Assembly (NCBI GenBank): GCA_026393755.1
Contig: JAPKZO010000039.1
Location: 1-64,000 of the forward strand
DNA: 64,000 nt
Origin: Acidobacteriota bacterium
Lineage (GTDB): Bacteria > Acidobacteriota > Vicinamibacteria > Vicinamibacterales > JAKQTR01
Direction of reading: 5' to 3'
In this document: positions 48,116-64,000 of the stretch, piece by piece
Position numbering within the stretch: the first letter of the stretch is position 1
Layout: the number at the start of each line of letters is the position of its first letter
Notes under the pieces: generated by a model
What the model was told of the DNA's origin: nothing
Seen by the model: only the letters and a program-made list of their open reading frames with translations
The model's database searches: none
Position numbers and translations under genes: made by a program

Positions 48116-50089
48116 CTACTTGGCGCGGACGTTTCGGAGACGCACCCGGGGGTCGTTCGAATCACGCGCCGGCGATCCGGACGGATAATCGCCGCTGGAT
48201 CGCCTCACGATCAGATCGATCCTCCTGAAGGCGCGGGTCGATTTCGTGACGGGCAGGATCAGCCTCATGTCCAGCCAGAGGCCGTCACGCAGCACGACGC
48301 GATTGGCCAGGCGCCCGTCCACCATCAACTCCAGATCCGCTCCATCCTCACCGGCCGCCGGGCTGGCCGAGAGGTACAGACTTTGTGCGTCGGCGGGCAC
48401 GAACATCGTCGCACGTGGCCCGATCCATTCAAACCGGGCGTTCGACACCGGGTCGACGCTGCCCTCCGCAAAGCCATACCGCGTGCGGGACAGGTCCACC
48501 TGGTCGCTGGCCAGACGCGCGCGAAACGGCACCGACACGAAGATGAGCAGCGCGATGAGCGCTGCGGCACGCGATCTCCAGCGGCCGGAAGCCGGACGGC
48601 CGTCCTGGATCGACAGCGGCTGCTCGGTACTCGCGGAACGGCCCGAAAGAGCATCAGCCCGCGCGACGGCGAGGCCGAGCGCGATCCAGAAGCTGCAGGC
48701 AAACGCGCCAATGAGCAGCGGGTGTCCCGTCAGAAACGTCAAGAGCGTGGCGACAAGACCCAGTAGCAGGGCTCGGAGGAGTGGATCGGCATCGGCCGAC
48801 AGCGCCTGGCGGGCGCGGCGCCAGCTTGAGGCGAGCACCCACAGGAACAGACCCAGGCCCGTCACGCCCAGCTCGACGCCGATCTGGGCAAAGTTGTTAT
48901 GGGCATTCTCGGCGGCGTAGAGCGTCCTGAGCCCTTCTGGCATCCACACTCTCGAAAGGTTCCAGTACTCGGCGATCCCCACGCCGAACAGCGGCGCCGA
49001 CTTGAGCATGTCCCAGCTGAGTTGCAGGAACAGCCATCGATTCTCCAGGGTGGCCACGATCGACGACTCGGGCCCTGGGCGCCCCACGATGATCGCGTAG
49101 ACGAGGGCGACGAGGGCAACCGCCACCAGCGCGAGCCGCGCCCTGGCCTGGCGTCCGGCTCCGACCGCCATCACCGCAGCGAGTGTCAGCAGGATTGAGA
49201 ACTGGGCGGACCGTGATCCGGTCAGCCACAGGGCCGCGATGACCGCGCCGGCGGCGAGCCACCACACCGGCCGCCATCTTCCGACCATGATTCCGAGCAC
49301 CCAGAGCAGCGGGAGCGCCAGCACGAACTGCGAACCGGCGGCATTGAAGTCGGACGTGTGCACGCTCAACCGGAGCGACGTGAGCGCATAGAGCAGGAAC
49401 GCAACCGGATCGGCCTCCCGCACCAGGGCCGTTCCCAGGCGGACCAACGACAGGACACCCGCGGCGGCAATCCCGATGGCGAGCATGCGAGCCACGGCAG
49501 ACTGCAGGTCGGGGCGCCGCCTGGTCACCTGGAGCACGGCCGCCATGACCAGAACGCCTTCGAGCAGGAGCGCCGCAGGGTCCCAGTTCTGCGTTTCGAA
49601 GTGCGTCAAACGGAAATAGTCGTGCGCGAGGAGACCGGTGATCAACCGGATGAACTGCCAGGGGGGCGCGGTTGCGCTCTGCACGGCGACTGACACCACG
49701 ACGAGCGAGGCGGAGACGGCCAGCGCAAACAGCGCGAGGGGCGCCGACAGGCTGTCGTCGCGATCGAGGATTGACTGGCGCCTCACGACGCTGTGCACCA
49801 GCCAGCCGACCAGAAACGCCAGGAGGAGCGGCTCCGCCGTTCGCCCTTGCGGGGCGCCGACCATCAAGGCGATGGGCCCGCCCAGCGTCGCGAGCGCCGC
49901 GATCGCGAGCAATCCCTGCGCCGGGCGCAGCGCCGACAACAGCGTCAGGCCTGCGTAGGCAGCCCTGGCCGCGACAGGAAAGCGATCGAACCAGAAGAAC
50001 GACTGCCATAAGATCGCGACGACCGGCAACGCCAGCAGGCTGGCCCATGGCCATCGCCGCGCGCGGAGGATTTCGAGTGCGCCTCTCAT
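48116..50089 (-). CDS. O-antigen ligase family membrane protein
   Basis: 657 aa with about 12 transmembrane helices in the first 500 residues. ENAHNNFAQIGVELGVTGLG is the conserved periplasmic loop of the Wzy_C/O-antigen ligase family, followed by three helices. A soluble beta-rich C-terminal domain of about 150 residues is extra. It is likely to ligate or polymerise surface glycan. It marks one edge of the polysaccharide locus and is divergent from the methyltransferase at 50296. Confidence 0.82.
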   Translation of the reverse strand: MRGALEILRARRWPWASLLALPVVAILWQSFFWFDRFPVAARAAYAGLTLLSALRPAQGLLAIAALATLGGPIALMVGAPQGRTAEPLLLAFLVGWLVHSVVRRQSILDRDDSLSAPLALFALAVSASLVVVSVAVQSATAPPWQFIRLITGLLAHDYFRLTHFETQNWDPAALLLEGVLVMAAVLQVTRRRPDLQSAVARMLAIGIAAAGVLSLVRLGTALVREADPVAFLLYALTSLRLSVHTSDFNAAGSQFVLALPLLWVLGIMVGRWRPVWWLAAGAVIAALWLTGSRSAQFSILLTLAAVMAVGAGRQARARLALVAVALVALVYAIIVGRPGPESSIVATLENRWLFLQLSWDMLKSAPLFGVGIAEYWNLSRVWMPEGLRTLYAAENAHNNFAQIGVELGVTGLGLFLWVLASSWRRARQALSADADPLLRALLLGLVATLLTFLTGHPLLIGAFACSFWIALGLAVARADALSGRSASTEQPLSIQDGRPASGRWRSRAAALIALLIFVSVPFRARLASDQVDLSRTRYGFAEGSVDPVSNARFEWIGPRATMFVPADAQSLYLSASPAAGEDGADLELMVDGRLANRVVLRDGLWLDMRLILPVTKSTRAFRRIDLIVRRSSGDYPSGSPARDSNDPRVRLRNVRAK

Positions 50090-50295: not shown

Positions 50296-51270
50296 GTGAT
50301 TCCAGCCGATTCGTTCGACGCCTACTACTACCAGCACTGCTGCGGGCAGCCGTATGTCCGCAATGACGTGTGGCTGGGTTCGTTTGGCCGCATCGCCGAT
50401 CGGATTGTGGCCGACATCGCGCCTGCGCGCGTGCTCGACGCGGGGTGCGCCCTGGGGTTTCTGGTCGAGACGCTCCGCGACCGGGGGGTTGACGCCTGGG
50501 GCGTCGACATCTCTCCGTTCGCGATAGAGCAGGTCTACGATCCGATCAAGCCTTACTGCCGGGTCGGTTCGGTGACCGGCGATCTGGGTGGTCCCTGGGA
50601 TCTCGTCGTGTCGATCGAAGTCGCCGAGCACATGCCGATCCGCGATGCCGAGGCGGCGATCGCAAACATGTGCGCTCAGACTACCGACATCCTGTTCTCG
50701 TCTTCGCCGGTCGACCACCGCGAACCGACGCACGTCAACGTCCACCCGCCTGAATACTGGGCGGAACAGTTTGCGCGGCACGGTTTCTATCGCGACGTCG
50801 ATTACGACGCGACATACATCGTGCCGTGGGCGGCCCGGTTCCGGAGGCGGCAGGAGACGGTGCCTCGCCTGGTGCTCGACTACGAGCGCCGCTACTGGGC
50901 GTTGCTGTCGGCGGCGACCGATGCCCGGAACTACTCGGCCGACATCCAGAACGCGCTGGCGGCGACGGAAGCCGAGCGGGACGCCTTGCTGGCCGAGCGG
51001 AGCGCGTTGCGGGTCGAGCGGGACGCCTTGCTGGCCGAGCGGGACGCCTTGCTGGCCGAGCGGGGCGGGTTGAAGACGGCGTACGACTCAATGACCGTAC
51101 AGCGCGAGGCCCTGCGGAGGGAACGTGATGACCTGCGCGACAGCCACGACCGGGTGGCCACCAGACTGAATCAGGCTCTTGACGCGATTGGCCACATGAA
51201 ACGGAGCCGCTTCTGGCGGTTGCGCGAGGCCCTGGTCCGGCTGAGGCGCCTGTTCTCAGTTCGCCGGTAG
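50296..51270 (+). CDS. SAM methyltransferase with C-terminal coiled coil
   Basis: 324 aa. Motif I is RVLDAGCALGFLVETLRDRG, followed by DLVVSIEVAEHMPIRDAEAA. The last ~110 residues form a coiled coil built from repeats of the kind ERDALLAERDALLAER. GTG start at 50296 with GGAG upstream. It resembles the glycan-chain-terminating or capping methyltransferases of polysaccharide loci that use a coiled coil as a ruler (for example WbdD); whether it does so is inference. Its 3' end overlaps the convergent glycosyltransferase gene by 15 nt. Confidence 0.85.
   Translation: MIPADSFDAYYYQHCCGQPYVRNDVWLGSFGRIADRIVADIAPARVLDAGCALGFLVETLRDRGVDAWGVDISPFAIEQVYDPIKPYCRVGSVTGDLGGPWDLVVSIEVAEHMPIRDAEAAIANMCAQTTDILFSSSPVDHREPTHVNVHPPEYWAEQFARHGFYRDVDYDATYIVPWAARFRRRQETVPRLVLDYERRYWALLSAATDARNYSADIQNALAATEAERDALLAERSALRVERDALLAERDALLAERGGLKTAYDSMTVQREALRRERDDLRDSHDRVATRLNQALDAIGHMKRSRFWRLREALVRLRRLFSVRR
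50974..51066 (+). repeat. 21-bp tandem repeats encoding a coiled coil
   Basis: GAGCGGGACGCCTTGCTGGCC recurs about four times at 21-bp spacing, exactly one heptad. One copy is diverged (SALRVER). The near-identity at the DNA level allows slippage to change coiled-coil length by whole heptads. Confidence 0.85.
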
Positions 51271-52527
51271 TCTGGACGCCACGTCGCGCGTGGCGTCCGC
51301 ATTCAGCACCCCCGTGTAGATCTCGCGGAAGCGCTCGGCGACGCGTCTCCACGTGTACCGGGCCAGGGTCTTGGTGCGGCCAGCTTCCCCCATGTTCCGC
51401 GCCCGCTCTGCAGAGCGCACGAGATCCAGAATGGCGCGCGCGAGGGCCTGATCGTCCTGGTAGTCGACGAGCAGCCCGTCCACGTCCTCTGAGATAACCG
51501 AGGGCACCGCGCCCGATCTCGCGCCAATCACCGGCTTGCCCGCCGCCCAGGCCTCGAGATACGAGATCCCGAACGATTCGTACCCCGACGGATACGCCAG
51601 CAGATCAATCGCCCCGAACAGCCACGGCTTCTTGGCGGTTGGGAAATCCACGAGGAGACGCGACTGGCGCTGGAAGTCCGCCGGCCACGCGTGCATGATC
51701 CGCTCGACGTGCGGCGTATACAGCGTCCGGTGACCGGCCACGAGCAGATTGAGATGGGGCTCCGCCTGCCACACCTGAGGCATGGCGCGGAGCAGCGTAT
51801 CCAGCCCTTTGTGGCCGCCAAGCTGCCCGATGAAGCCGACCAGCGGCCGTTTGTCGAAGCCCATGCGCCACTTGGCTTCCTCGCTGGTCACGCCGTCGTA
51901 CGTCTCGGCATCGATACCAACACCGGCGACGTGCACCCGTTCGGGCGCCGCGCCTCTCGCGATTACGTAGTCGGCCTCGAACTGTGTGAGCGCGACGTAC
52001 GCGTCGGCTTCGCGAATCGCTTTGTAGATCATCGACCGCTGGAAGCCCCAGTCGTCATCGGGATGCAGACAGCCGGTGAGCACGCACGGGCGGCCCGTCA
52101 CGTGGGCTCCGGCGAGCGCGTCGAACATGTGCAGCAACGGAAACGATGCGGCGGCTACCACGTCGCACGGCCACTCCGTGATGGCCTGGCGGAGCCCAGG
52201 CACGATGGGACCGCCCGCCAGCGCCCGAAGGCGTTGGTTGAACGGCAGTCTGAGTCTGTACGCGAGCGCTTGAGGACCGCGCAGCGCCCGGCTCACGCCG
52301 CGGCGGACGGGGAACCGCCGCACGCGCACGCCGCCGATGTCCTCCCATCCGGTCGTCAGGTGAGGCAGCCGCGGCGAGAAGAAGGCCTCCCCATTCAGAC
52401 AGTCGGTCGTGAAGACGGCGACCTGGTCGCCGTATCGCCGGGCCAACTCCTCCGACACCCGCTGAATCAACAGTTCGGTGCCGCCAATCGCGGGGGCATA
52501 GCCTTGCGTGACGTGGAGGATTCGCAT
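51256..52527 (-). CDS. glycosyltransferase family 4
   Basis: 423 aa. MRILHVTQGYAPAIGGTELL is the N-terminal GT-B domain of GT4 enzymes. The donor-side motif is VGFIGQLGGHKGLDTLLRAM, then YPSGYESFGISYLEAWAAGK (the E-x7-E type active-site stretch). Start at 52527; GGAGG lies 6-9 nt upstream. Retaining glycosyltransferase of the polysaccharide locus; sugar unknown. It is divergent from the Wzm-like gene. Confidence 0.93.
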   Translation of the reverse strand: MRILHVTQGYAPAIGGTELLIQRVSEELARRYGDQVAVFTTDCLNGEAFFSPRLPHLTTGWEDIGGVRVRRFPVRRGVSRALRGPQALAYRLRLPFNQRLRALAGGPIVPGLRQAITEWPCDVVAAASFPLLHMFDALAGAHVTGRPCVLTGCLHPDDDWGFQRSMIYKAIREADAYVALTQFEADYVIARGAAPERVHVAGVGIDAETYDGVTSEEAKWRMGFDKRPLVGFIGQLGGHKGLDTLLRAMPQVWQAEPHLNLLVAGHRTLYTPHVERIMHAWPADFQRQSRLLVDFPTAKKPWLFGAIDLLAYPSGYESFGISYLEAWAAGKPVIGARSGAVPSVISEDVDGLLVDYQDDQALARAILDLVRSAERARNMGEAGRTKTLARYTWRRVAERFREIYTGVLNADATRDVASRLPAN

Positions 52528-52567
52528 GTCCGGCAATGGAGCCCATGATAATCTAATCGCGCGAAAT
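52528..52567. promoter_or_regulatory. AT-rich divergent promoter region
   Basis: The 40-nt gap between the GT4 gene (minus) and the ABC permease (plus) contains GATAAT and TAATCT on the plus strand (52547-52554) and TAGATT on the minus strand. It stands out as AT-rich. It is the only space for both promoters if the starts are right. Confidence 0.4.
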
Positions 52568-53386
52568 ATGACCGATATGATGGACCGCGCGACCGAGCGC
52601 CCGAGCATCGGGAGCACGATTGCGGGATTGATACGCTATCGGGAACTGCTGAAGAACCTGGTCCTGAAGGACCTGAAGCTCAAGTACCGCGGATCGGTGC
52701 TCGGATTCCTCTGGTCGCTCGTCAATCCGCTTATGATGATCGGCGTGTACGCCGTCGCGTTCACGTACATCCTGCGCACCAGCGTCGAGGGATTCGTGTT
52801 CTTCCTGCTCCTGGGAATCCTGCCGTGGAGCTTCTTCGCCAGCTCGGCCACGATGTCCACCGGCGCCATCATCGACAGCGGCAGCCTGATGAGAAGCGTC
52901 AGGTTCCCGCCGGCGATCCTGCCGATCGCGACAGTGCTTTTCAACCTGGCGCAGTACCTGCTGACGATCGTCGTGTTCCTACCGCTGATGCTGCTGGTGT
53001 ACCGGGTGCCGCCATCAGGTCCGATGTTGCTGTACCCCGTCTTCCTCGGCCTGCAGGTGATGTTCACCGTGGGGGTCGCGCTGCTGCTCGCCGCGGGAAC
53101 GGCGTATTTCCGGGACATCCGGCATCTGCTTGACATCGCCCTCTCGATTCTCTTCTGGCTGACACCGATTGTGTACCCCCTGGCCCGGGTGTCAGAAGGG
53201 TTGCGGGCATTGATCCTGTTGACGCCCCTGTCGCCGTTCATCGTCGCCTACCAGCAGATCTTCTACTACCGCCAGTGGCCTGGCACCCGGGTCTGGATGA
53301 TCGCCACCGTGTACGCGTTCGGCACCCTGTGGGCGGGTGTGCGGGTATTTCTGGCGGTCGAAGACCGGCTGTCGGAGCGACTCTGA
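52568..53386 (+). CDS. ABC-2 type polysaccharide/polyol phosphate export permease (Wzm-like)
   Basis: 272 aa with six predicted transmembrane segments. LKYRGSVLGFLWSLVNPLMM is the ABC-2 signature of the Wzm/KpsM family, then LFWLTPIVYPLARVSEGLRA. It forms the channel that exports an undecaprenyl-linked glycan with the Wzt-like ATPase. The start is chosen at ATG 52568; ATG 52526 would overlap the divergent gene. Its stop overlaps the ATG of the ATPase by 1 nt. Confidence 0.93.
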   Translation: MTDMMDRATERPSIGSTIAGLIRYRELLKNLVLKDLKLKYRGSVLGFLWSLVNPLMMIGVYAVAFTYILRTSVEGFVFFLLLGILPWSFFASSATMSTGAIIDSGSLMRSVRFPPAILPIATVLFNLAQYLLTIVVFLPLMLLVYRVPPSGPMLLYPVFLGLQVMFTVGVALLLAAGTAYFRDIRHLLDIALSILFWLTPIVYPLARVSEGLRALILLTPLSPFIVAYQQIFYYRQWPGTRVWMIATVYAFGTLWAGVRVFLAVEDRLSERL

Positions 53387-54144
53387 TGGACACGGCCATC
53401 ATCGCCGAAGGTCTGTCCAAACGGTTCTTTCTGCGCCACAACCGGGCCGGCGAACTGAAAGTCCGGTTTCTGGGCGTGTTTCACGCGAACAAGCGGGAGA
53501 TGGTCGAAGAGTTCTGGGCGCTCCGGGATGTGTCGCTGTCGATTGGCCGGGGCGAGACGGTCGGCGTGGTCGGACGAAACGGTTCGGGAAAGAGCACGTT
53601 TCTGAAGCTCGTCGCCGGGCTGTACCAGCCCACCGCAGGGCGCCTGCTGGTGGCCCGCGCCGCCCGGATCGGCACGATGATCGAACTCGGAGTCGGCTTT
53701 CATGGTGAGCTGAGCGGACGCGAGAATGTGTTTCTGAATGCCTCGATCAACGGCCTGTCGCGGGGCGAGACCGAGGCCCTCTATCCCGCGATCGTCGCGT
53801 ACTCGGGGCTCGAGCACTTCATGGACGTGCCAATCAAGAACTACTCGTCGGGCATGCACATGCGGATCGGCTTTGCCATCGCCGCCAATCTCGATCCGGA
53901 CATTCTGCTGCTCGACGAGATTTTCGCGGTGGGCGATGCGGACTTTCAGCAGCAGTGCATCCATACCGTGAGGGACTTCAGGGCACGCGGCAAGACGATC
54001 CTGTTCGTTTCGCATTCGCCCGAGGCGGTACGGGCGATCTGCGACCGGGTGCTCGTCCTCGACCATGGACGGCTGTTGTATGATGGCGCGGTCGATGGGG
54101 GACTTGCCTGCTACGCGGACCTCGCGGCCACGCCGATCCGATGA
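53386..54144 (+). CDS. polysaccharide export ABC ATPase (Wzt-like), without C-terminal binding domain
   Basis: 252 aa. Walker A GRNGSGKST (63-71), signature NYSSGMHMRIGFAIA, Walker B ILLLDEIFAVGD and H-loop FVSHSPEAV. It ends right after the nucleotide-binding domain; Wzt proteins of the O8/O9a type carry an extra carbohydrate-binding domain that is absent here, so glycan recognition should be elsewhere or absent. Overlaps the next gene by ATGA. Confidence 0.93.
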   Translation: MDTAIIAEGLSKRFFLRHNRAGELKVRFLGVFHANKREMVEEFWALRDVSLSIGRGETVGVVGRNGSGKSTFLKLVAGLYQPTAGRLLVARAARIGTMIELGVGFHGELSGRENVFLNASINGLSRGETEALYPAIVAYSGLEHFMDVPIKNYSSGMHMRIGFAIAANLDPDILLLDEIFAVGDADFQQQCIHTVRDFRARGKTILFVSHSPEAVRAICDRVLVLDHGRLLYDGAVDGGLACYADLAATPIR

Positions 54145-56960
54145 CTCACGGCGCCGCTCCGACCCGGTTGCCCGCGCATGAGGGTTCCGTGCAGACTCGC
54201 CGCGACGAGATCGCAATTGAACTCGATGCCCTGGCGGCGCGCGAACGCGAATTGCGCCTGGCACTGGACGCGAATCTCGCCAGTATCAAGGCTATCAGGG
54301 CCACCTGGATCTACCGGATCACACACGTCGTGCGGCTGGTCGTTCCGCGCCGCGGAGCGGCTCAGACACTCGGGGCCGACCTGTCTCTGCCATCGGAACC
54401 GCTGCGGCCAGACGGGGATGGGCAGCCCGGGTCCGACGCCGCGCCCCAACGCGACGAATCGCCGGAACGCGTGCTGGCAAGGCGGCGAGCGGCACTGTCC
54501 CGCCTTGAGGAAGAGGCCAGCCGGGTTCACCTGCAACTGCATCACCTGATCCTCTCGCGCCCCCGGCGGGCGTGGATCCGGTTGCGCGCCAACATGGTCT
54601 TTGCCACCCACCCGTCATGGACCCTTGGCGCCCTGTGGCGGTTGATCTGCAGTCGCGGCCTGGCCGGCGGGATTGGCACGGCCCTGCATCGGTTCTTCTG
54701 GACCACCGATCTGTTTCGCTTCCATCCCTTGGAGGATCAACGAACCGATCAGCCTCACGCCGGTGACGCGATTCGGTGGCTGCCCCCGGTTCGGATCAGC
54801 CACCAGACCCGCCACGCGCTGTTCATGCACCCCACGTCGGCGGTCTCGTTCCGGTTTGCTCCTCAGGCCGGCTCGCGCGTGATCGCCGACTGCGGCCTGC
54901 TGCCGATCGTGTGGGCGAACAACCGGGGCGGCGTGGTGTTTGCGCTCGATGTCGAGGTCCCCTCGCTCGACTGGCGGACCACGCGTTCGCTTCGCATCAA
55001 TCCCGGCGAACGGTTCGCCGATCGCCGCTGGCGCCGCGTGGCCGTGCAGTTGCCGCCGGGTGCACTCCCAGAGGTCGTCGTGGGTTTCGCGACGACGCTG
55101 CCTGCGGGAGTATCCGGGGCCAACGCGTGGGCCGTCTGGGGTGAGCCGCGGATCGAATGGCGGCGGACGTTGGCCGACAGGTGGCGGTCGATTCGGGCGT
55201 TCGGTGTTCGAATCCGACGCTCGGGACTGATTGGGACGCTCCGGCAAATCAGAGATCTGCAGTCGGCCGACGAGCACACGGCGCGATACAGGCGCTGGAT
55301 CGCGATCAACACGCCGATGGAGACTGATCTCGCACAGATGGCTGCCGCGGTGGCGGGGTTTGGCATTCGCCCGCGGATCAGTGTGATCACGCCTGTCTAC
55401 AACACGGATCCGAGGTGGCTGCGCGCCTGCGTCGAATCGGTGCGCGGCCAGGTGTACCCCGACTGGGAGCTGTGCCTGGCCGACGACGGATCGACCAGGC
55501 ACGGGACTCTTCGTGTTCTGAAGGAGTACGAAGCGCTAGGCGATTCGCGGATCCATGTCGTCCACTGCGCGAGAAACGGCGGCATCTCCGCCGCGTCAAA
55601 CGCGGCGCTCGATGTGGCAACCGGCGAGTTCTTCGCCCTGCTCGATCACGACGACGAACTGGCGCCGGAAGCGCTGTATGAGGTGGCCCGCTTCCTCAAC
55701 GAGGTTCCGGACGCTGACTGGATCTACTCCGACGAAGACAAGCTCGACGCGGCCGGGGAGCGTTGCGACCCGTACTTCAAACCCGACTGGTCGCCCGAGC
55801 ATTTCCGGTCAACGATGTACACCTGTCACCTGATGGTGCTGCGTGCCAGCCTGGTCAGGGACGTGGGCGGGTTCAGGTCACGTTGCGATGGTGCGCAGGA
55901 CTACGACCTCGCGCTGCGCGTCAGTGAGCGCTCCGAGCGCATCCATCACATCCCGAAGATGCTCTACCGGTGGCGGAAGCTCCCCGAGTCGACCGCCTCG
56001 TCTGGCACCGCCAAGAACTGGGCTTCAGACGCCGGGGAACGGGCGCTGCAGGACCACGTGGCCCGCTGCGGGCTGGATGCCACCGTGGTGCCCGGCCCGG
56101 CGAACGGCCTGTACCGCGTGCGTCACAGAATCGCCGGCAAGCCGCTCGTCTCCATCATCATTCCGACCACCGGTCGTACGCGCGACGTCGAGGGACCTCA
56201 GATCAGCGTATTGGAATGCATCCAATCGATTGTGCGGAAGTCCACGTACGACCGCTACGAGCTCGTGATTGCCGATGACAGCAGCCTGCCGGAGGCGACC
56301 GAGGCGTTCCTGGAGGCGGTGCCGCACACGCGCGTGCATCATCCCGTCGAAGGCGCATTCAACTACCCCCGCAAGCTGAACGCTGCCGTGCGGGAGAGCC
56401 ACGGCAGCCACCTTCTCCTGTTCAACGACGACATCGAGGTGATCACTCCCGAGTGGATCGAGGCGATGCTCGAGTTCTCCCAGCAGGATGCCATCGGCGC
56501 GGTCGGCCCCAAGCTGCTCTATCCGGACGGGCGAATTCAGCACATCGGCGTCGTGATGGGTGTGTGCGGGCTGGCCGCGCACGCGTTTCATGGCCACGCA
56601 GGGTCCTCCACCGGCTACGGGTCGAGTGCCCTCATCATCAAGAACTACTCGGCGGTCACGGCAGCGTGCATGATGACGCGCCGCGACCTGTATGAGCGGA
56701 TGAACGGGTTTGACGAGCGTTTCGCGCTTGATTTCAACGATGTCGACTACTGCATGCGCCTTCGTCGGGCCGGGTACAGAATCGTGTTCACGCCACACGC
56801 GGAGTTGTGCCATGTCGAATCCGCGACGGCTCCGGCTCGGACCTGGAAATCCAGCGACCTCGAGCTGATGAGGACGACGTGGGCCGATGTCTGCGAACGT
56901 GATCCCTATTACAATCCCCATCTGACGCGCGACTTCCCCGACTATCGCGTCAGGATATGA
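54141..56960 (+). CDS. large two-domain GT2 glycosyltransferase with N-terminal extension
   Basis: 939 aa. Residues ~20-60 and ~110-150 are helical/coiled-coil-like, followed by a beta-rich domain at about 200-350 (FALDVEVPSLDWRTTRSLRI) of unknown family. Two GT-A domains follow: one from residue ~413 (ISVITPVYNTDPRWLRACVE; LDHDDELAPEAL; YSDEDKLD) and one from ~669 (LVSIIIPTTGR; LLLFNDDIEVITPEWIEAML; FDERFALDFNDVDYCMRLRR). Bifunctional chain-extending enzymes of polysaccharide loci have this two-domain form. Coupled to wzt by ATGA. Confidence 0.9.
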   Translation: MTHGAAPTRLPAHEGSVQTRRDEIAIELDALAARERELRLALDANLASIKAIRATWIYRITHVVRLVVPRRGAAQTLGADLSLPSEPLRPDGDGQPGSDAAPQRDESPERVLARRRAALSRLEEEASRVHLQLHHLILSRPRRAWIRLRANMVFATHPSWTLGALWRLICSRGLAGGIGTALHRFFWTTDLFRFHPLEDQRTDQPHAGDAIRWLPPVRISHQTRHALFMHPTSAVSFRFAPQAGSRVIADCGLLPIVWANNRGGVVFALDVEVPSLDWRTTRSLRINPGERFADRRWRRVAVQLPPGALPEVVVGFATTLPAGVSGANAWAVWGEPRIEWRRTLADRWRSIRAFGVRIRRSGLIGTLRQIRDLQSADEHTARYRRWIAINTPMETDLAQMAAAVAGFGIRPRISVITPVYNTDPRWLRACVESVRGQVYPDWELCLADDGSTRHGTLRVLKEYEALGDSRIHVVHCARNGGISAASNAALDVATGEFFALLDHDDELAPEALYEVARFLNEVPDADWIYSDEDKLDAAGERCDPYFKPDWSPEHFRSTMYTCHLMVLRASLVRDVGGFRSRCDGAQDYDLALRVSERSERIHHIPKMLYRWRKLPESTASSGTAKNWASDAGERALQDHVARCGLDATVVPGPANGLYRVRHRIAGKPLVSIIIPTTGRTRDVEGPQISVLECIQSIVRKSTYDRYELVIADDSSLPEATEAFLEAVPHTRVHHPVEGAFNYPRKLNAAVRESHGSHLLLFNDDIEVITPEWIEAMLEFSQQDAIGAVGPKLLYPDGRIQHIGVVMGVCGLAAHAFHGHAGSSTGYGSSALIIKNYSAVTAACMMTRRDLYERMNGFDERFALDFNDVDYCMRLRRAGYRIVFTPHAELCHVESATAPARTWKSSDLELMRTTWADVCERDPYYNPHLTRDFPDYRVRI

Positions 56961-59844: not shown

Positions 59845-62339
59845 CGGGAAGTGATGGTCAGTCTCCAGTGGTTGACGCAGGAGACCTGATGATCGCCTTC
59901 CACTTGTGCCACGGTCGCGGTATACACGTCAGGAGTCAACGCGCTGGTGCTGCCCGCGGCTCGAAATGAGTGGGCGCCCTGCGATTCGGTTCGCAGATAG
60001 AACAGCTTCCCACGGCTGGATATCAGTTCGATCCAGCGTTCTCCAGACGGTTTCCACGCCGGTCCCGACGCCTCGCCTCTGAAATCCAGCGGGGCTCCCC
60101 GCCGGATCGTATACATCGGAGCGGGCCCCTCACCATTGATGGACGAGAAGTCGCACGCCAGCCGCAACGCCGGATCGACGATCGCACCTGGCCGTCCTGG
60201 TTCGGAGACGAACTGGCCCGTCGCTGCGGCCGGCGGCAACGGAGTGACGAATGGACGAAGATATTCTACGCTCGCGGCCTTGAAGACGGCGCCGAGCATG
60301 CCGGGACCACTCAGACGAAATTGCAGTGGGGAATCTCCCGGCGTCGCGAAATCGAACGTGGTCACACCGGACGCACTCCCCTGCCGCCTGGCCAGGACCA
60401 GTTTGCCCACGGTTCGTTCCACTTCGGCAAAGAACGGCCGCGACGGATCCGGTCTGACGAAGAACGTCGCGCGATAGTGACCGGCGAGCAGGTTCACCGG
60501 TTGTCCCAACATCTGATACACCTGCTGCGCGGGAGGGAGTCCGAGTGGCCAGAGGTACGACAATTCCTCGGTGATGTCGATGACATAGATCGGTTTCGGA
60601 TCGGCATGCAGCGTCTCCGTCAGCCTGTACAGATAGTACGGATACTGGTAGCTCACCAGCTGGAGATCGGTCATGCGGGTGGCGGAAAGGAGATGATCGC
60701 CGGGGCGCATCCAGGTCCGGATCTGTTCGGGATAGCGCGCAATCCGGACGTCGTAGTGCCCCAGTGCTTCAATTTGCAGCACGAACAGATCGCTGAGATC
60801 GAACCTCCGGTGCCAGTTGATAAAGAACTGATCGAGCGGCGTGACGAGGTGCTGTTCCTGGTAGTACGCCATGTTGGCGCACACGATCAACCGCGCATTC
60901 GCGTTGACGTTGCTCCGTGACAGAAAACTGGTGATGCGCGACACGGGGTATCCGGCGCTGCCCGCCAACGCGAACATCTCCCTGGCGCTGCTGACGAACG
61001 TCAGCGAGAAGAACGCGAAGACGAGCACCGCGGCAACGCGCTGCACTCGAAAGCGAGGCGTCAACAGAATCAAGGCACCAGCCACCAACACGAGACCGAC
61101 GGCACCCGTGATCAGATGGCGCGGCGAAAAAGAATCGACGGAGACCCACGCGAAGGAACCGACGGCGCTGACCCAAGGCACGGCGACGACCGGATTGTAG
61201 TGCGCGGCCCGGTAGATCGGAATCAATAGAAGCAGTGGCACCAGGATGAACAACGCGCGGGTACTCATCCAGGAACCCTTCAGCGAATCGGTGCCCTTCA
61301 CCGCGAACATGGCGATGAGCGGAAACGAGTAGAAGAACAGCCGTTCGTCCAGTTCACCAGTGAGTCCGCCCAGCAGGATTCCGTGAATCGTAATCTGGGC
61401 GCCTATGGTGGCTGCCAGGAGGACGGCCAGTGGGAATCGGGTGCGGCCGCACTGTGTGAACCAGAGAAGCAGCGGAATCGCCACCAACAACCCGGGGGCG
61501 AGAAGCAGATCGGCGAGATAGAGTCCGAAGACGGACGCGGTCAGATGCGGTAACCCGTAGTCACCCAAGGTGCGGCCGTACATTCCGAGCCCGGCAGACT
61601 GACTCGTGTACTTGTAGGCCTGCCAGAGTGCCTGCGTAGCGATCACGAGGCCACACATGGAGACGATCTGCCACGCAAAGCGCGGGGGGGTCTGCTTACG
61701 CCGGAGCAGGGTCGCCGTGACCACAATCACGGTGACCAACACGGCGACAGCGAAGGACAACGACGCCAGCTTCGTGAGCAGCATCAACGACAAGCAGGTT
61801 CCGCCGAGCATAGCGCGACGCCAGGTGGGCTGTTCGACCCACAGGGCAAATGCGACGAAGGCCGTCATGAAGAGCGGGTAGTTCACCGTCTCCGCCATGT
61901 ACATGCCGGCGAACAAGGTGTGTGGGAGAAACGCCGCCGCAGCCGCCATCAGATAGACGGAGAGACGGTCGAGCCCGATGAGACGGCCCAACCGGTATGC
62001 CGGAAAGACCACCAGTGAGATAAACGCACAACTGAAGAAGAGCGCCGAGATCCGTGCATTTGATCCCACCGAGTGCGCAAAGGCGACAAACAGGGGATAC
62101 AGCGGCGGCAGGGCGGTGTGGACTTCACCGCGCGTGGTGAAGCCGGCACCCAGGCGGATACTATCCCCGAGGCCGATGTACTGCACCTCATCGGTGGCGA
62201 GCAATGGGAATTTCGCTTGCGCCCGAAGACGCAGGAAATGCACGGCGACGCTGACAACGTAAATCAGCGTGAGCCACACCCATGGGGGAATAGGAGCGCG
62301 CTGCCGCCGCTCCCCGGGAAACGTCCCCAGTCCGATCAT
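59841..62339 (-). CDS. GT39/PMT-like membrane glycosyltransferase with C-terminal soluble domain
   Basis: 832 aa. The first 480 residues hold about 11 transmembrane helices; FPLLATDEVQYIGLGDSIRL with the acidic residues after the first helix is typical of GT-C enzymes that use polyprenol-phosphate sugars. The remaining 350 residues form a soluble, beta-rich part (YPYYLYRLTETLHADPKPIY and later GEGPAPMYTIRRGAPLDFRG). Start at 62339 overlaps the stop of the upstream gene by ATGA. A downstream partner of the polyprenol-phosphate glycosyltransferase-like protein is plausible. Confidence 0.85.
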   Translation of the reverse strand: MIGLGTFPGERRQRAPIPPWVWLTLIYVVSVAVHFLRLRAQAKFPLLATDEVQYIGLGDSIRLGAGFTTRGEVHTALPPLYPLFVAFAHSVGSNARISALFFSCAFISLVVFPAYRLGRLIGLDRLSVYLMAAAAAFLPHTLFAGMYMAETVNYPLFMTAFVAFALWVEQPTWRRAMLGGTCLSLMLLTKLASLSFAVAVLVTVIVVTATLLRRKQTPPRFAWQIVSMCGLVIATQALWQAYKYTSQSAGLGMYGRTLGDYGLPHLTASVFGLYLADLLLAPGLLVAIPLLLWFTQCGRTRFPLAVLLAATIGAQITIHGILLGGLTGELDERLFFYSFPLIAMFAVKGTDSLKGSWMSTRALFILVPLLLLIPIYRAAHYNPVVAVPWVSAVGSFAWVSVDSFSPRHLITGAVGLVLVAGALILLTPRFRVQRVAAVLVFAFFSLTFVSSAREMFALAGSAGYPVSRITSFLSRSNVNANARLIVCANMAYYQEQHLVTPLDQFFINWHRRFDLSDLFVLQIEALGHYDVRIARYPEQIRTWMRPGDHLLSATRMTDLQLVSYQYPYYLYRLTETLHADPKPIYVIDITEELSYLWPLGLPPAQQVYQMLGQPVNLLAGHYRATFFVRPDPSRPFFAEVERTVGKLVLARRQGSASGVTTFDFATPGDSPLQFRLSGPGMLGAVFKAASVEYLRPFVTPLPPAAATGQFVSEPGRPGAIVDPALRLACDFSSINGEGPAPMYTIRRGAPLDFRGEASGPAWKPSGERWIELISSRGKLFYLRTESQGAHSFRAAGSTSALTPDVYTATVAQVEGDHQVSCVNHWRLTITSR

Positions 62340-64000
62340 TTCAGTACCGCTGGTTCCGAAAGAAGGGAATCCGCAGGAAAGGCCCGCGCGACCACGATCC
62401 CCTGCGTGTACACGACCGGCCAGTTAATGGATACGTCCAGGACGTCCCCGTGCCTGCGCACCTCAGTCACGACCTCGTTGAGCGGCAAAGGCCTCTCGTC
62501 CGGAAACCTCCAGGCCCCTGCCAGTTCCGTCAGGAAACGCGCGACGACGTATAACCACGTCGGAGTCGGAAACGTGATGATCACCAGGGCGCCGGGTTTC
62601 GCGCGGACAAAATGCGCGTGAATGGCTCTGGCGGTATCCTGACGCCCGAAATGTTCTATCAGACCGACGCTGATCACGAGGTCGGCGGGCGCGACACTAC
62701 TCGTGGAATTGATCACATCGTCGTTGATGACTTCAACGGCTTCGTCATCGCCATGTCGTTCCCGGAATATAGCCAGGCCCCGTTGATTATTGTCAATAAT
62801 GGCGTACGCCGCGTCGGGGTATTTCGCCCTCAATCCTGAAAAGAAACAACTATTTCCGCCGCCCAGTTCACAAATTCGAGAAATGGGCGTCGTGCCATAC
62901 GTATCGACTAGTCGGTGGATTCTATCTTCGGTGAACTTGCGTGATATCGACGATGTCTTGAATGGCGCATTGTAGTACGCATCCCAGTGGGTCTTCTGCT
63001 CCCTGGTCGATCGGGCTGAGTAGACCAGTATGTTCTGGGCGGCAAAGCTCAATAGAAAGATGGTTCCCTCGGCAATGATCTTGGCGATATAGGGGCTCAC
63101 ATTGAGATATGTGACCATCGGCGCGATAAGGCTGTACGACAACATCATGAGGACCACGACGAGAATGCAATACTTGACGATCTCACTGGCCGCGCTATTC
63201 CCCGATTTGAACACCCACGACTTGCCCAGGGTGAATTGAAACGTCCCTGCTCCCAGTCGGGCGGCAGCAATGCTGAGAAACAGGCTTCCTGAGTTCAGGA
63301 GGAACAGCGCAAATATCAGGTAGTCGATGGCGGCGGTGGCCAGGGACAGTATTGAGAAGCGCAGAAACACGAAGTAGATCTTCAGTGAATCGCGCAGGTA
63401 ATTGAAGTGGGAGCCTTCGTTGTTGGCCTTGTAGATGGTGCGGATAGGGACTTCGTGAAACGTGCGCCGGCTTCTCGCCGCGCGAATCAGCATGTCCAAT
63501 TCGAAATCGTAGCCTGACTCTACTGAGCGCAGCAGATCACAAAGCACCCCTCTTGGAATACCGCGGAGCCCGGTTTGTGTGTCCACCAGGGTGACACCTG
63601 TCACCATCCTGAACACCAGGGCGGTGAGTTTGTTCCCCAGAAGACTTCTCACGGGTACGTTTCTTTCCAGCTTACGGCTGCCCAGACAAAGTGCTTCGGG
63701 AAAAGCCTGAAGAGATTCTGAAACGCGCAGAATGTCTTCTATCGCGTGCTGTCCATCCGCGTCCGCTGCGACAACGCCGACGCAGTCTTCGGCATAGTGG
63801 ACCAGGAAATGGTTGAACGCGGTCTTGAGGGCCTGGCCTTTTCCGAGATTGACGGCATGATGGAGCACTGCAACTTGATTGGAGTGGGCGGCGATGGCAT
63901 CGAACGTGCGTCGGGATGCTCCAGTGGATCCGTCATCGACAACAACGATGTATTGAGATGGATCCCGGGTGAGGCCATCTACCAAAGCAATCAACTCTTC
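62336..64000 (-). CDS. three-domain protein: GT2 polyprenol-phosphate transferase, GtrA-like helices, SAM methyltransferase (5' partial)
   Basis: At least 554 aa, cut by the right edge of the window; the first visible codons are internal. Domain 1 (~1-225) is a DPM/GT2 enzyme: IVVVDDGSTGASRRTFDAIA, VVAADADGQHAIEDI, QTGLRGIPRGVLCDLLRSVE. Domain 2 (~225-345) has four helices of the GtrA family (LATAAIDYLIFALFLLNSGS; FTLGKSWVFKSG). Domain 3 (~355-552) is a class I methyltransferase: ISRICELGGGNSCFFSGLRA, SVGLIEHFGRQDTARAIHAH. The region is visibly more AT-rich than the rest of the window, which hints at recent transfer. Confidence 0.88.
   Translation of the reverse strand, partial: EELIALVDGLTRDPSQYIVVVDDGSTGASRRTFDAIAAHSNQVAVLHHAVNLGKGQALKTAFNHFLVHYAEDCVGVVAADADGQHAIEDILRVSESLQAFPEALCLGSRKLERNVPVRSLLGNKLTALVFRMVTGVTLVDTQTGLRGIPRGVLCDLLRSVESGYDFELDMLIRAARSRRTFHEVPIRTIYKANNEGSHFNYLRDSLKIYFVFLRFSILSLATAAIDYLIFALFLLNSGSLFLSIAAARLGAGTFQFTLGKSWVFKSGNSAASEIVKYCILVVVLMMLSYSLIAPMVTYLNVSPYIAKIIAEGTIFLLSFAAQNILVYSARSTREQKTHWDAYYNAPFKTSSISRKFTEDRIHRLVDTYGTTPISRICELGGGNSCFFSGLRAKYPDAAYAIIDNNQRGLAIFRERHGDDEAVEVINDDVINSTSSVAPADLVISVGLIEHFGRQDTARAIHAHFVRAKPGALVIITFPTPTWLYVVARFLTELAGAWRFPDERPLPLNEVVTEVRRHGDVLDVSINWPVVYTQGIVVARAFPADSLLSEPAVLK

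What the first reader, a model, noticed from the sequence alone, without database searches (positions are those of the whole stretch)
50296..51270. Methyltransferase with heptad-length DNA repeats: a possible adjustable molecular ruler
The C-terminal coiled coil is encoded by nearly identical 21-bp repeats, so replication slippage would change it by whole heptads. In O8/O9a loci the coiled coil of WbdD sets O-antigen chain length together with an ABC exporter. The same locus here has Wzm/Wzt genes and a Wzt lacking the glycan-binding domain.
Basis: partly seen in the sequence, partly recalled or inferred. Interest (0 to 1): 0.5.

Follow-up and report, generated by a model that had tools for sequence, protein, structure and literature searches.

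The report
Repeat-built spacer on a glycan methyltransferase
A bacterium carries a probable sugar-chain-capping enzyme whose long spacer arm was partly built by copying a 21-letter DNA unit, a plausible but untested way for evolution to tune the length of surface sugar chains.

Summary
In detail: 4.5 copies of a 21-bp in-frame unit (50971-51064) lie in the C-terminal helix of a class I methyltransferase (MT). Codon identity (45 of 48; 0 of 100,000 simulations) shows DNA duplication. AlphaFold gives a 115-residue helix, a break and a short basic helix. The MT family, sampled mostly from Chloroflexota, has a Wzt ATPase nearby in 24 of 47 surroundings, and 14 of 46 members are fused to a double GT2 like the window's. 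This supports a polymerase-terminator system working like WbdD of E. coli O8 or Klebsiella O7 ORF6, without a kinase. Spacers span 20-138 residues in 42 members and differ by 8-21 in 6 of 13 pairs with at least 90% identical MT domains. Against whole-heptad stepping, 11 of 99 length differences are multiples of seven. In-frame 21- or 42-bp arrays occur in 4 of 42 spacers (three lineages) and 0 of 42 MT domains. Wzt lacks the cap-binding domain in 5 of 24 loci, this one included, unlike the terminated systems described in the paper consulted. Strain variation and any effect on chain length could not be tested. A new variant of a known kind; slippage tuning is unproven.

The parts
50296..51270 (+). 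Class I SAM methyltransferase with C-terminal helical arm (324 aa); by gene orientation its own transcription unit, between a divergent ligase-like gene and a convergent GT4 gene
   Evidence: ORF; Methyltransf_23 E 4.6e-12; 50-60% identity to eight relatives over the MT domain (alignment A1)
50296..50853 (+). Catalytic MT domain, about residues 1-186
   Evidence: AlphaFold model; structural matches to sugar and small-molecule MTs incl. TylM1, CalS10, CgnL, Z 16.4-17.1
50860..51204 (+). Single long helix, residues 189-303 (about 171 A if straight), presumed coiled coil
   Evidence: AlphaFold secondary structure, block mean pLDDT 68-94; oligomeric state not tested, no coiled-coil predictor run
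50971..51064 (+). 21-bp tandem array, 4.5 copies, in frame: heptads AERDALL/AERSALR/VERDALL/AERDALL/AERGGLK
51208..51258 (+). C-terminal basic helix (residues 305-321) after a break in the long helix; possible membrane or polymerase docking helix (inference)
   Evidence: hydrophobic moment 0.44 for residues 303-320; a loosely similar end motif, placed by eye, in 42 of 46 members
52526..53386 (+). wzm-like ABC-2 permease (start approximate)
   Evidence: PF01061 E 1.3e-12
53386..54144 (+). wzt-like ATPase (start inferred at ATG 53386, about 252 aa) that ends with the nucleotide-binding domain; no cap-binding (Wzt_C) domain
   Evidence: Pfam, queried from 53311: ABC_tran and a sub-cutoff AAA_21 only; 7 residues after the ATPase profile, which itself included this protein as a seed
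54141..56960 (+). Double GT2 glycosyltransferase (939 aa), presumed polymerase
   Evidence: Pfam; 35-49% identity in local alignments to the GT2-GT2 part of MT-arm-GT2-GT2 fusions
51256..52617 (-). GT4 glycosyltransferase, convergent with the MT gene and overlapping its end by 15 bp
48116..50089 (-). O-antigen-ligase-like membrane protein (Wzy_C), divergent from the MT gene
   Evidence: PF04932 E 8e-13

Best explanation
The protein is most likely the cap-adding (methyl) terminator of a polysaccharide that is polymerised in the cytoplasm on an undecaprenyl carrier and exported by the neighbouring Wzm/Wzt. Its MT domain sits at the far end of a rigid helical arm; the C-terminal basic helix docks at the membrane or on the double GT2 polymerase. 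A growing chain can be methylated only once it is long enough to reach the MT domain, so arm length biases chain length. Part of the arm was lengthened by in-frame duplication of a 21-bp unit, each copy adding one heptad (about 10 A). Shown: the array, its duplication at DNA level, a helical arm in the model, family association with wzm/wzt and fusion with GT2-GT2, and large natural variation in arm length. Inferred: substrate, capping, docking, oligomerisation and the ruler role.
For: MT-arm-GT2-GT2 in one chain in 14 of 46 members. A strong Wzt ATPase in the fetched surroundings of 24 of 47 loci (46 members plus the broken L065), in 17 of those 24 just upstream on the same strand by the coordinates. 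In L063 the order is wzm-wzt-rmlCBAD-MT-GT2GT2, and in L010 the MT lies between rmlA and rmlD. A Glycos_transf_4 (WecA/TagO-type) protein lies at contig position 68655-70439, beyond the window. The model has a 115-residue helix, a break and a short helix, like the layout that PMC11231755 describes for WbdD (passages). The MT profile reaches WbdD at E 2.5e-4 to 3.5e-4. MT-only proteins of this kind exist: O8 WbdD (PMC3482155 passages) and the E. coli O101 MT with a C-terminal coiled coil (PMC13168486 passages). DNA duplication. L060 and L088, 94% identical in the MT, differ within the spacer by one clean 21-bp and one 30-bp indel, with a further indel after it.
Against: Wzt has no cap-binding domain, whereas PMC11231755 states that all terminated O-polysaccharide examples have one (passages). 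The MT gene is not in the wzm-wzt-GT2 transcription unit. 23 of 47 surroundings, several short or at contig ends, show no strong Wzt ATPase, and L011-L013 show none of the profiled glycan genes within the 8-17 kb fetched. L012, L013, L072, L075 and L076 have spacers of only 20-23 residues. WbdD is only a remote relative, and seven other PDB sequences score better. No coiled-coil predictor was run and the model is a monomer. Length differences are not heptad multiples.
Confidence: 0.55

Rival explanations
1. The MT decorates the glycan, or adds a terminal methyl without controlling length, and length is set by coupling of synthesis to export through the CBM-less transporter, as in Klebsiella O2a. 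The arm only docks the enzyme to the polymerase.
For: Wzt lacks Wzt_C. In O1/O2 systems the transporter lacks a CBM, chain length follows transporter:synthase stoichiometry, and the O1 terminal pyruvyltransferase is not needed for length (PMC11231755 passages). Some spacers are too short for a ruler.
Against: 19 of 24 loci with a nearby Wzt ATPase have a CBD-bearing Wzt, which suits a cap that is read; the arm here is fairly long (83 residues from MT end to the end motif, family median 54).
Confidence: 0.3
2. The 21-bp array is selectively neutral: coiled coils of low complexity gain and lose short in-frame duplications, and the heptad unit is simply what a coiled coil tolerates.
For: Length differences show no excess of multiples of seven (11 of 99). 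Arrays were found in only 4 of 42 spacers, and not in the closest relative L077 nor in L007.
Against: The arrays counted in spacers, three lineages, all have periods that are multiples of 21 bp, though a heptad protein pattern itself favours that. This rival can be true together with the best explanation.
Confidence: 0.5
3. The MT acts on something other than the exported glycan (for example a lipid or small molecule) and lies in the locus by chance.
For: Own transcription unit; L011-L013 show none of the profiled glycan genes nearby; the fold matches natural-product MTs.
Against: Fusion to GT2-GT2 in 14 of 46 members and the ATPase just upstream of the MT in 17 loci.
Confidence: 0.08

Closest known systems
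WbdD of E. coli O8 (MT only) and O9a (MT plus kinase)
   Same: N-terminal MT, long C-terminal helical arm, C-terminal helix, partner multi-domain GT, ABC export (PMC3482155, PMC5082667, PMC11231755 passages)
   Different: No kinase; MT domain only remotely similar to O9a WbdD (O8 WbdD was not compared); GT2-GT2 partner; Wzt without cap-binding domain; part of the arm encoded by DNA repeats
Klebsiella pneumoniae O7 ORF6
   Same: MT, coiled coil and two GT modules, with rhamnose genes and Wzm/Wzt (PMC11231755 passages); the closest solved MT named there, CgnL 7pd7, also scores here at Z 16.4
   Different: ORF6 has a kinase and a CBM-like domain between MT and coil and is one chain; the window protein has neither and its GT2-GT2 is separate. 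Sequences were not compared directly
E. coli O101/O162 methyltransferase
   Same: One MT domain plus C-terminal coiled coil, needed for chain methylation and affecting length (PMC13168486 passages)
   Different: Its sequence was not compared here; no DNA repeats are mentioned in the passages seen
NeuO polysialic acid O-acetyltransferase
   Same: A polysaccharide-modifying enzyme with a variable number of protein heptads, each from 21 bp of tandem-repeat DNA, changed by slippage (PMC3046976 passages)
   Different: NeuO repeats are 7-bp units at the 5' end, cause on/off switching, number 2 to 93, and raise activity; here the units are 21 bp, imperfect, few and C-terminal

Membership tests
WbdD-type chain terminator | N-terminal class I MT domain | tested here: met
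WbdD-type chain terminator | MT domain homologous to WbdD's | tested here: inconclusive
   profile E 2.5e-4 to 3.5e-4, but ubiquinone and chlorophyll MTs among others score better
WbdD-type chain terminator | Kinase domain (O9a; O8 lacks it) | tested here: not met
   no kinase in Pfam, and no extra domain in the model
WbdD-type chain terminator | Long C-terminal coiled-coil arm ending in a membrane or polymerase docking region | tested here: inconclusive
   115-residue helix plus 17-residue basic helix in a monomer model; docking and oligomer state untested
WbdD-type chain terminator | Wzt with cap-binding domain (Wzt_C) | tested here: not met
   the genome's one Wzt_C match is on another contig, beside its own wzm
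WbdD-type chain terminator | Arm length sets glycan chain length | not testable with these tools
   needs glycan analysis of arm variants
Klebsiella O7 ORF6-type terminator-polymerase | MT, arm and GT2-GT2 associated | tested here: met
   as separate genes in one locus; as one chain in 14 of 46 relatives
Klebsiella O7 ORF6-type terminator-polymerase | Kinase domain between MT and arm | tested here: not met
   the MT domain runs directly into the helix at residue 189
NeuO-like variable heptad enzyme | In-frame tandem DNA repeat encoding heptads | tested here: met
NeuO-like variable heptad enzyme | Copy number varies among strains | not testable with these tools

The most novel reading that the evidence does not exclude
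An evolvable chain-length ruler without an export checkpoint: perfect 28-30 bp repeats let recombination or slippage add or remove one to three heptads (about 10-30 A) of the terminator arm, and because the Wzt does not read the cap, every resulting chain length can still be exported. Populations could then carry a heritable mixture of glycan lengths.
Probability: 0.12. Interest if true: 0.75.

Novelty: new variant of a known kind. Interest (0 to 1): 0.42.

Why it matters
Coiled-coil rulers are established in a few systems (E. coli O9a, Klebsiella O12 according to PMC11231755). This family offers a natural series of arms from 20 to 138 residues on similar MT domains, including close pairs that differ by counted residues and arms partly built from DNA repeats, so the ruler idea and the way rulers evolve could be tested on natural variants. 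The five loci that pair an armed MT with a Wzt lacking the cap-binding domain also ask whether termination can be uncoupled from export.

Tried and rejected
Own-genome search for the repeat: no copy outside this gene at two or fewer mismatches, two at three. Same-genus and same-family genomes for strain comparison: no match in G001-G004; 5 of 60 genomes matched at E 1e-10, the window's own included, and of the other four only G053 has an ortholog. Heptad quantisation of arm length was tested and not supported. The cyanobacterial sample gave only the starting genome (1 of 292). One search covered the same 82 genomes as and added nothing. The structure searches did not list WbdD among the 50 rows shown; by the tool's note this says nothing about membership. 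Literature: no paper listed (3 papers; none; none) or 64 (10 of 61 listed) is, by its title, about repeat-number variation in such terminators; led to NeuO. Searches were listings only, apart from the papers named. Hagelueken 2015 and Mann 2019 are not held and were not read, so the family may be covered there. Rows dropped: L065 (MT gene broken by a stop) and L079 (same protein as L007) are not among the 46; L066, L073, L074 and L092 gave no measurable spacer, leaving 42. Arrays not counted: a 45-bp one in L073, beyond the clear coil and not a heptad multiple; a 22-bp one in L071 (score 54) that lies after its end motif; a weak 12-bp one in L058 (score 39). Contig-end Wzt fragments with a cap-binding domain in L101 and L103, and a wzm without a found ATPase in L067, were not counted among the 24.

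Full report
What is there. ORF 50296-51270 encodes a 324-residue protein with a class I methyltransferase domain (Methyltransf_23, E 4.6e-12). Its C-terminal third contains a 21-bp tandem array at 50971-51064, 4.5 copies, score 153, the strongest array in the window. Units 1, 3 and 4 differ by at most one base; units 2 and 5 differ from the unit by 4 and 5 bases (counted). Identical amino acids use identical codons in 45 of 48 comparisons, against 18.9 +- 3.9 expected and 0 of 100,000 simulations, so the DNA itself was duplicated. Perfect repeats of 28-30 bp, 21, 42 and 63 bp apart, remain. The array supplies about 31 residues of the arm.

Structure. The AlphaFold2 model (9 sequences, mean pLDDT 84.8, pTM 0.57) shows the MT domain, one helix from residue 189 to 303, a break, and a helix from 305 to 321. 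The MT domain matches small-molecule and sugar MTs at Z 15.4-17.4 in the 50 rows shown. The C-terminal segment is basic with a moderate hydrophobic moment. The model is a monomer and no coiled-coil predictor was run, so 'coiled coil' is an inference from heptad sequence and helix.

Locus. The window holds wzm, wzt, a double GT2, a GT4 and a ligase-like gene; a Glycos_transf_4 protein of WecA/TagO type follows beyond the window. By orientation the MT gene is its own transcription unit between a divergent and a convergent gene. Wzt ends just after the nucleotide-binding domain. The genome's one Wzt_C match is on another contig, beside its own wzm.

Family. Eight relatives share 50-60% identity with the window over the MT domain. 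At E 1e-40 the family was found in 2 of 297 genomes of the window's phylum, itself included (G053, found, was not in that sample), in 23 of 301 genomes of the phylum of L010's genome, titled Chloroflexi, starting genome included, in 26 of 82 in one order of that phylum, and in 1 of 292 in the cyanobacterial sample, the starting genome itself. The window's order also holds G053, whose protein equals that of the record titled 'Acidobacteria bacterium RIFCSPLOWO2_12_FULL_66_21', so the window is by inference from Acidobacteriota. Of 46 members examined, 14 carry in the same chain a GT2-GT2 homologous to the window's 939-residue protein (35-49% identity in local alignments). Of 47 surroundings scanned (46 members and the broken L065; several short or at contig ends), 24 hold a strong Wzt ATPase: 19 with a cap-binding domain and 5 without (window, L007, L010, L063, L068). 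In 17 of the 24 the ATPase lies just upstream of the MT on the same strand (coordinates). The other 23 show none.

Arm length. Measured from the MT profile end to an end motif chosen by eye, 42 of 46 members have spacers of 20-138 residues, median 54; the window has 83. Among 13 pairs with MT identity of at least 0.9, 6 differ in length, by 8 to 21 residues. L060 and L088 (94%) differ within the spacer by a clean 21-bp indel plus a 30-bp indel; L055 and L057 carry a 42-bp duplication not found in L056, with other differences. L054 and L080-L084 all keep 47 residues. Over 99 unequal pairs at identity 0.7 or more, 11 are multiples of seven against about 14 by chance (pairs are not independent). 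Tandem arrays (score 50 or more, period 12 or more) occur in 4 of 42 spacers (window, L055, L057, L088) and 0 of 42 MT domains; arrays outside the counted stretches are told under Tried and rejected. So in-frame duplication of heptad-length DNA is a recurring but minor route to new arm lengths.

Meaning. In WbdD, insertions and truncations of the coil change modal chain length (PMC5082667 passages), and an extended coiled coil with the terminating enzyme at its far end is described as a marker of this assembly strategy (PMC11231755 passages). The window system fits that layout with an MT-only cap, as in O8 (PMC3482155 passages). It departs from it in the missing cap-binding domain, which PMC11231755 says all terminated examples have, and in that point resembles the O1/O2 transporters, where length follows transporter stoichiometry. 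NeuO shows that heptad number in a polysaccharide-modifying enzyme can be changed by slippage (PMC3046976 passages).

Verdict. The repeat is real and lies in a likely terminator arm. A ruler role is plausible, adjustable slippage is possible but unsupported by any strain comparison, and whole-heptad stepping is not the family's main mode. I do not file it as a WbdD: two features named for WbdD systems were tested and not met. The claim is that it works like one.

Noticed in passing
L007 12555-13103: The Wzt of the Acidobacteria relative has, instead of a cap-binding domain, a C-terminal stretch of about 180 residues that looks by eye like a degenerate methyltransferase domain; Pfam gave no match at E 0.1.
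   Followed up: partly
window 62336-63994 (ORF continues past the window end): One protein combining GT2, GtrA/DPMS transmembrane and (below Pfam cut-off) methyltransferase domains, an unusual fusion in the same glycan region.
   Followed up: partly
L111 9450-11623 (own genome, contig C28): A second wzm-wzt pair, with cap-binding domain, sits beside genes that look by eye like ATP synthase subunits; the other Acidobacteria genome (L112) has a Wzt with this domain beside similar genes.
   Followed up: partly
L073, between coil and GT2: A 45-bp tandem array (2.0 copies, 95% match), in frame but not a heptad multiple, in a fused relative.
   Followed up: no
L065 (G614:C54): The MT gene is interrupted by a TAG stop, a likely pseudogene.
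   Followed up: no
L011, L012, L013: Family members with none of the profiled glycan genes nearby; L012 and L013 share parts of their neighbourhood, so the MT may have another role there.
   Followed up: no
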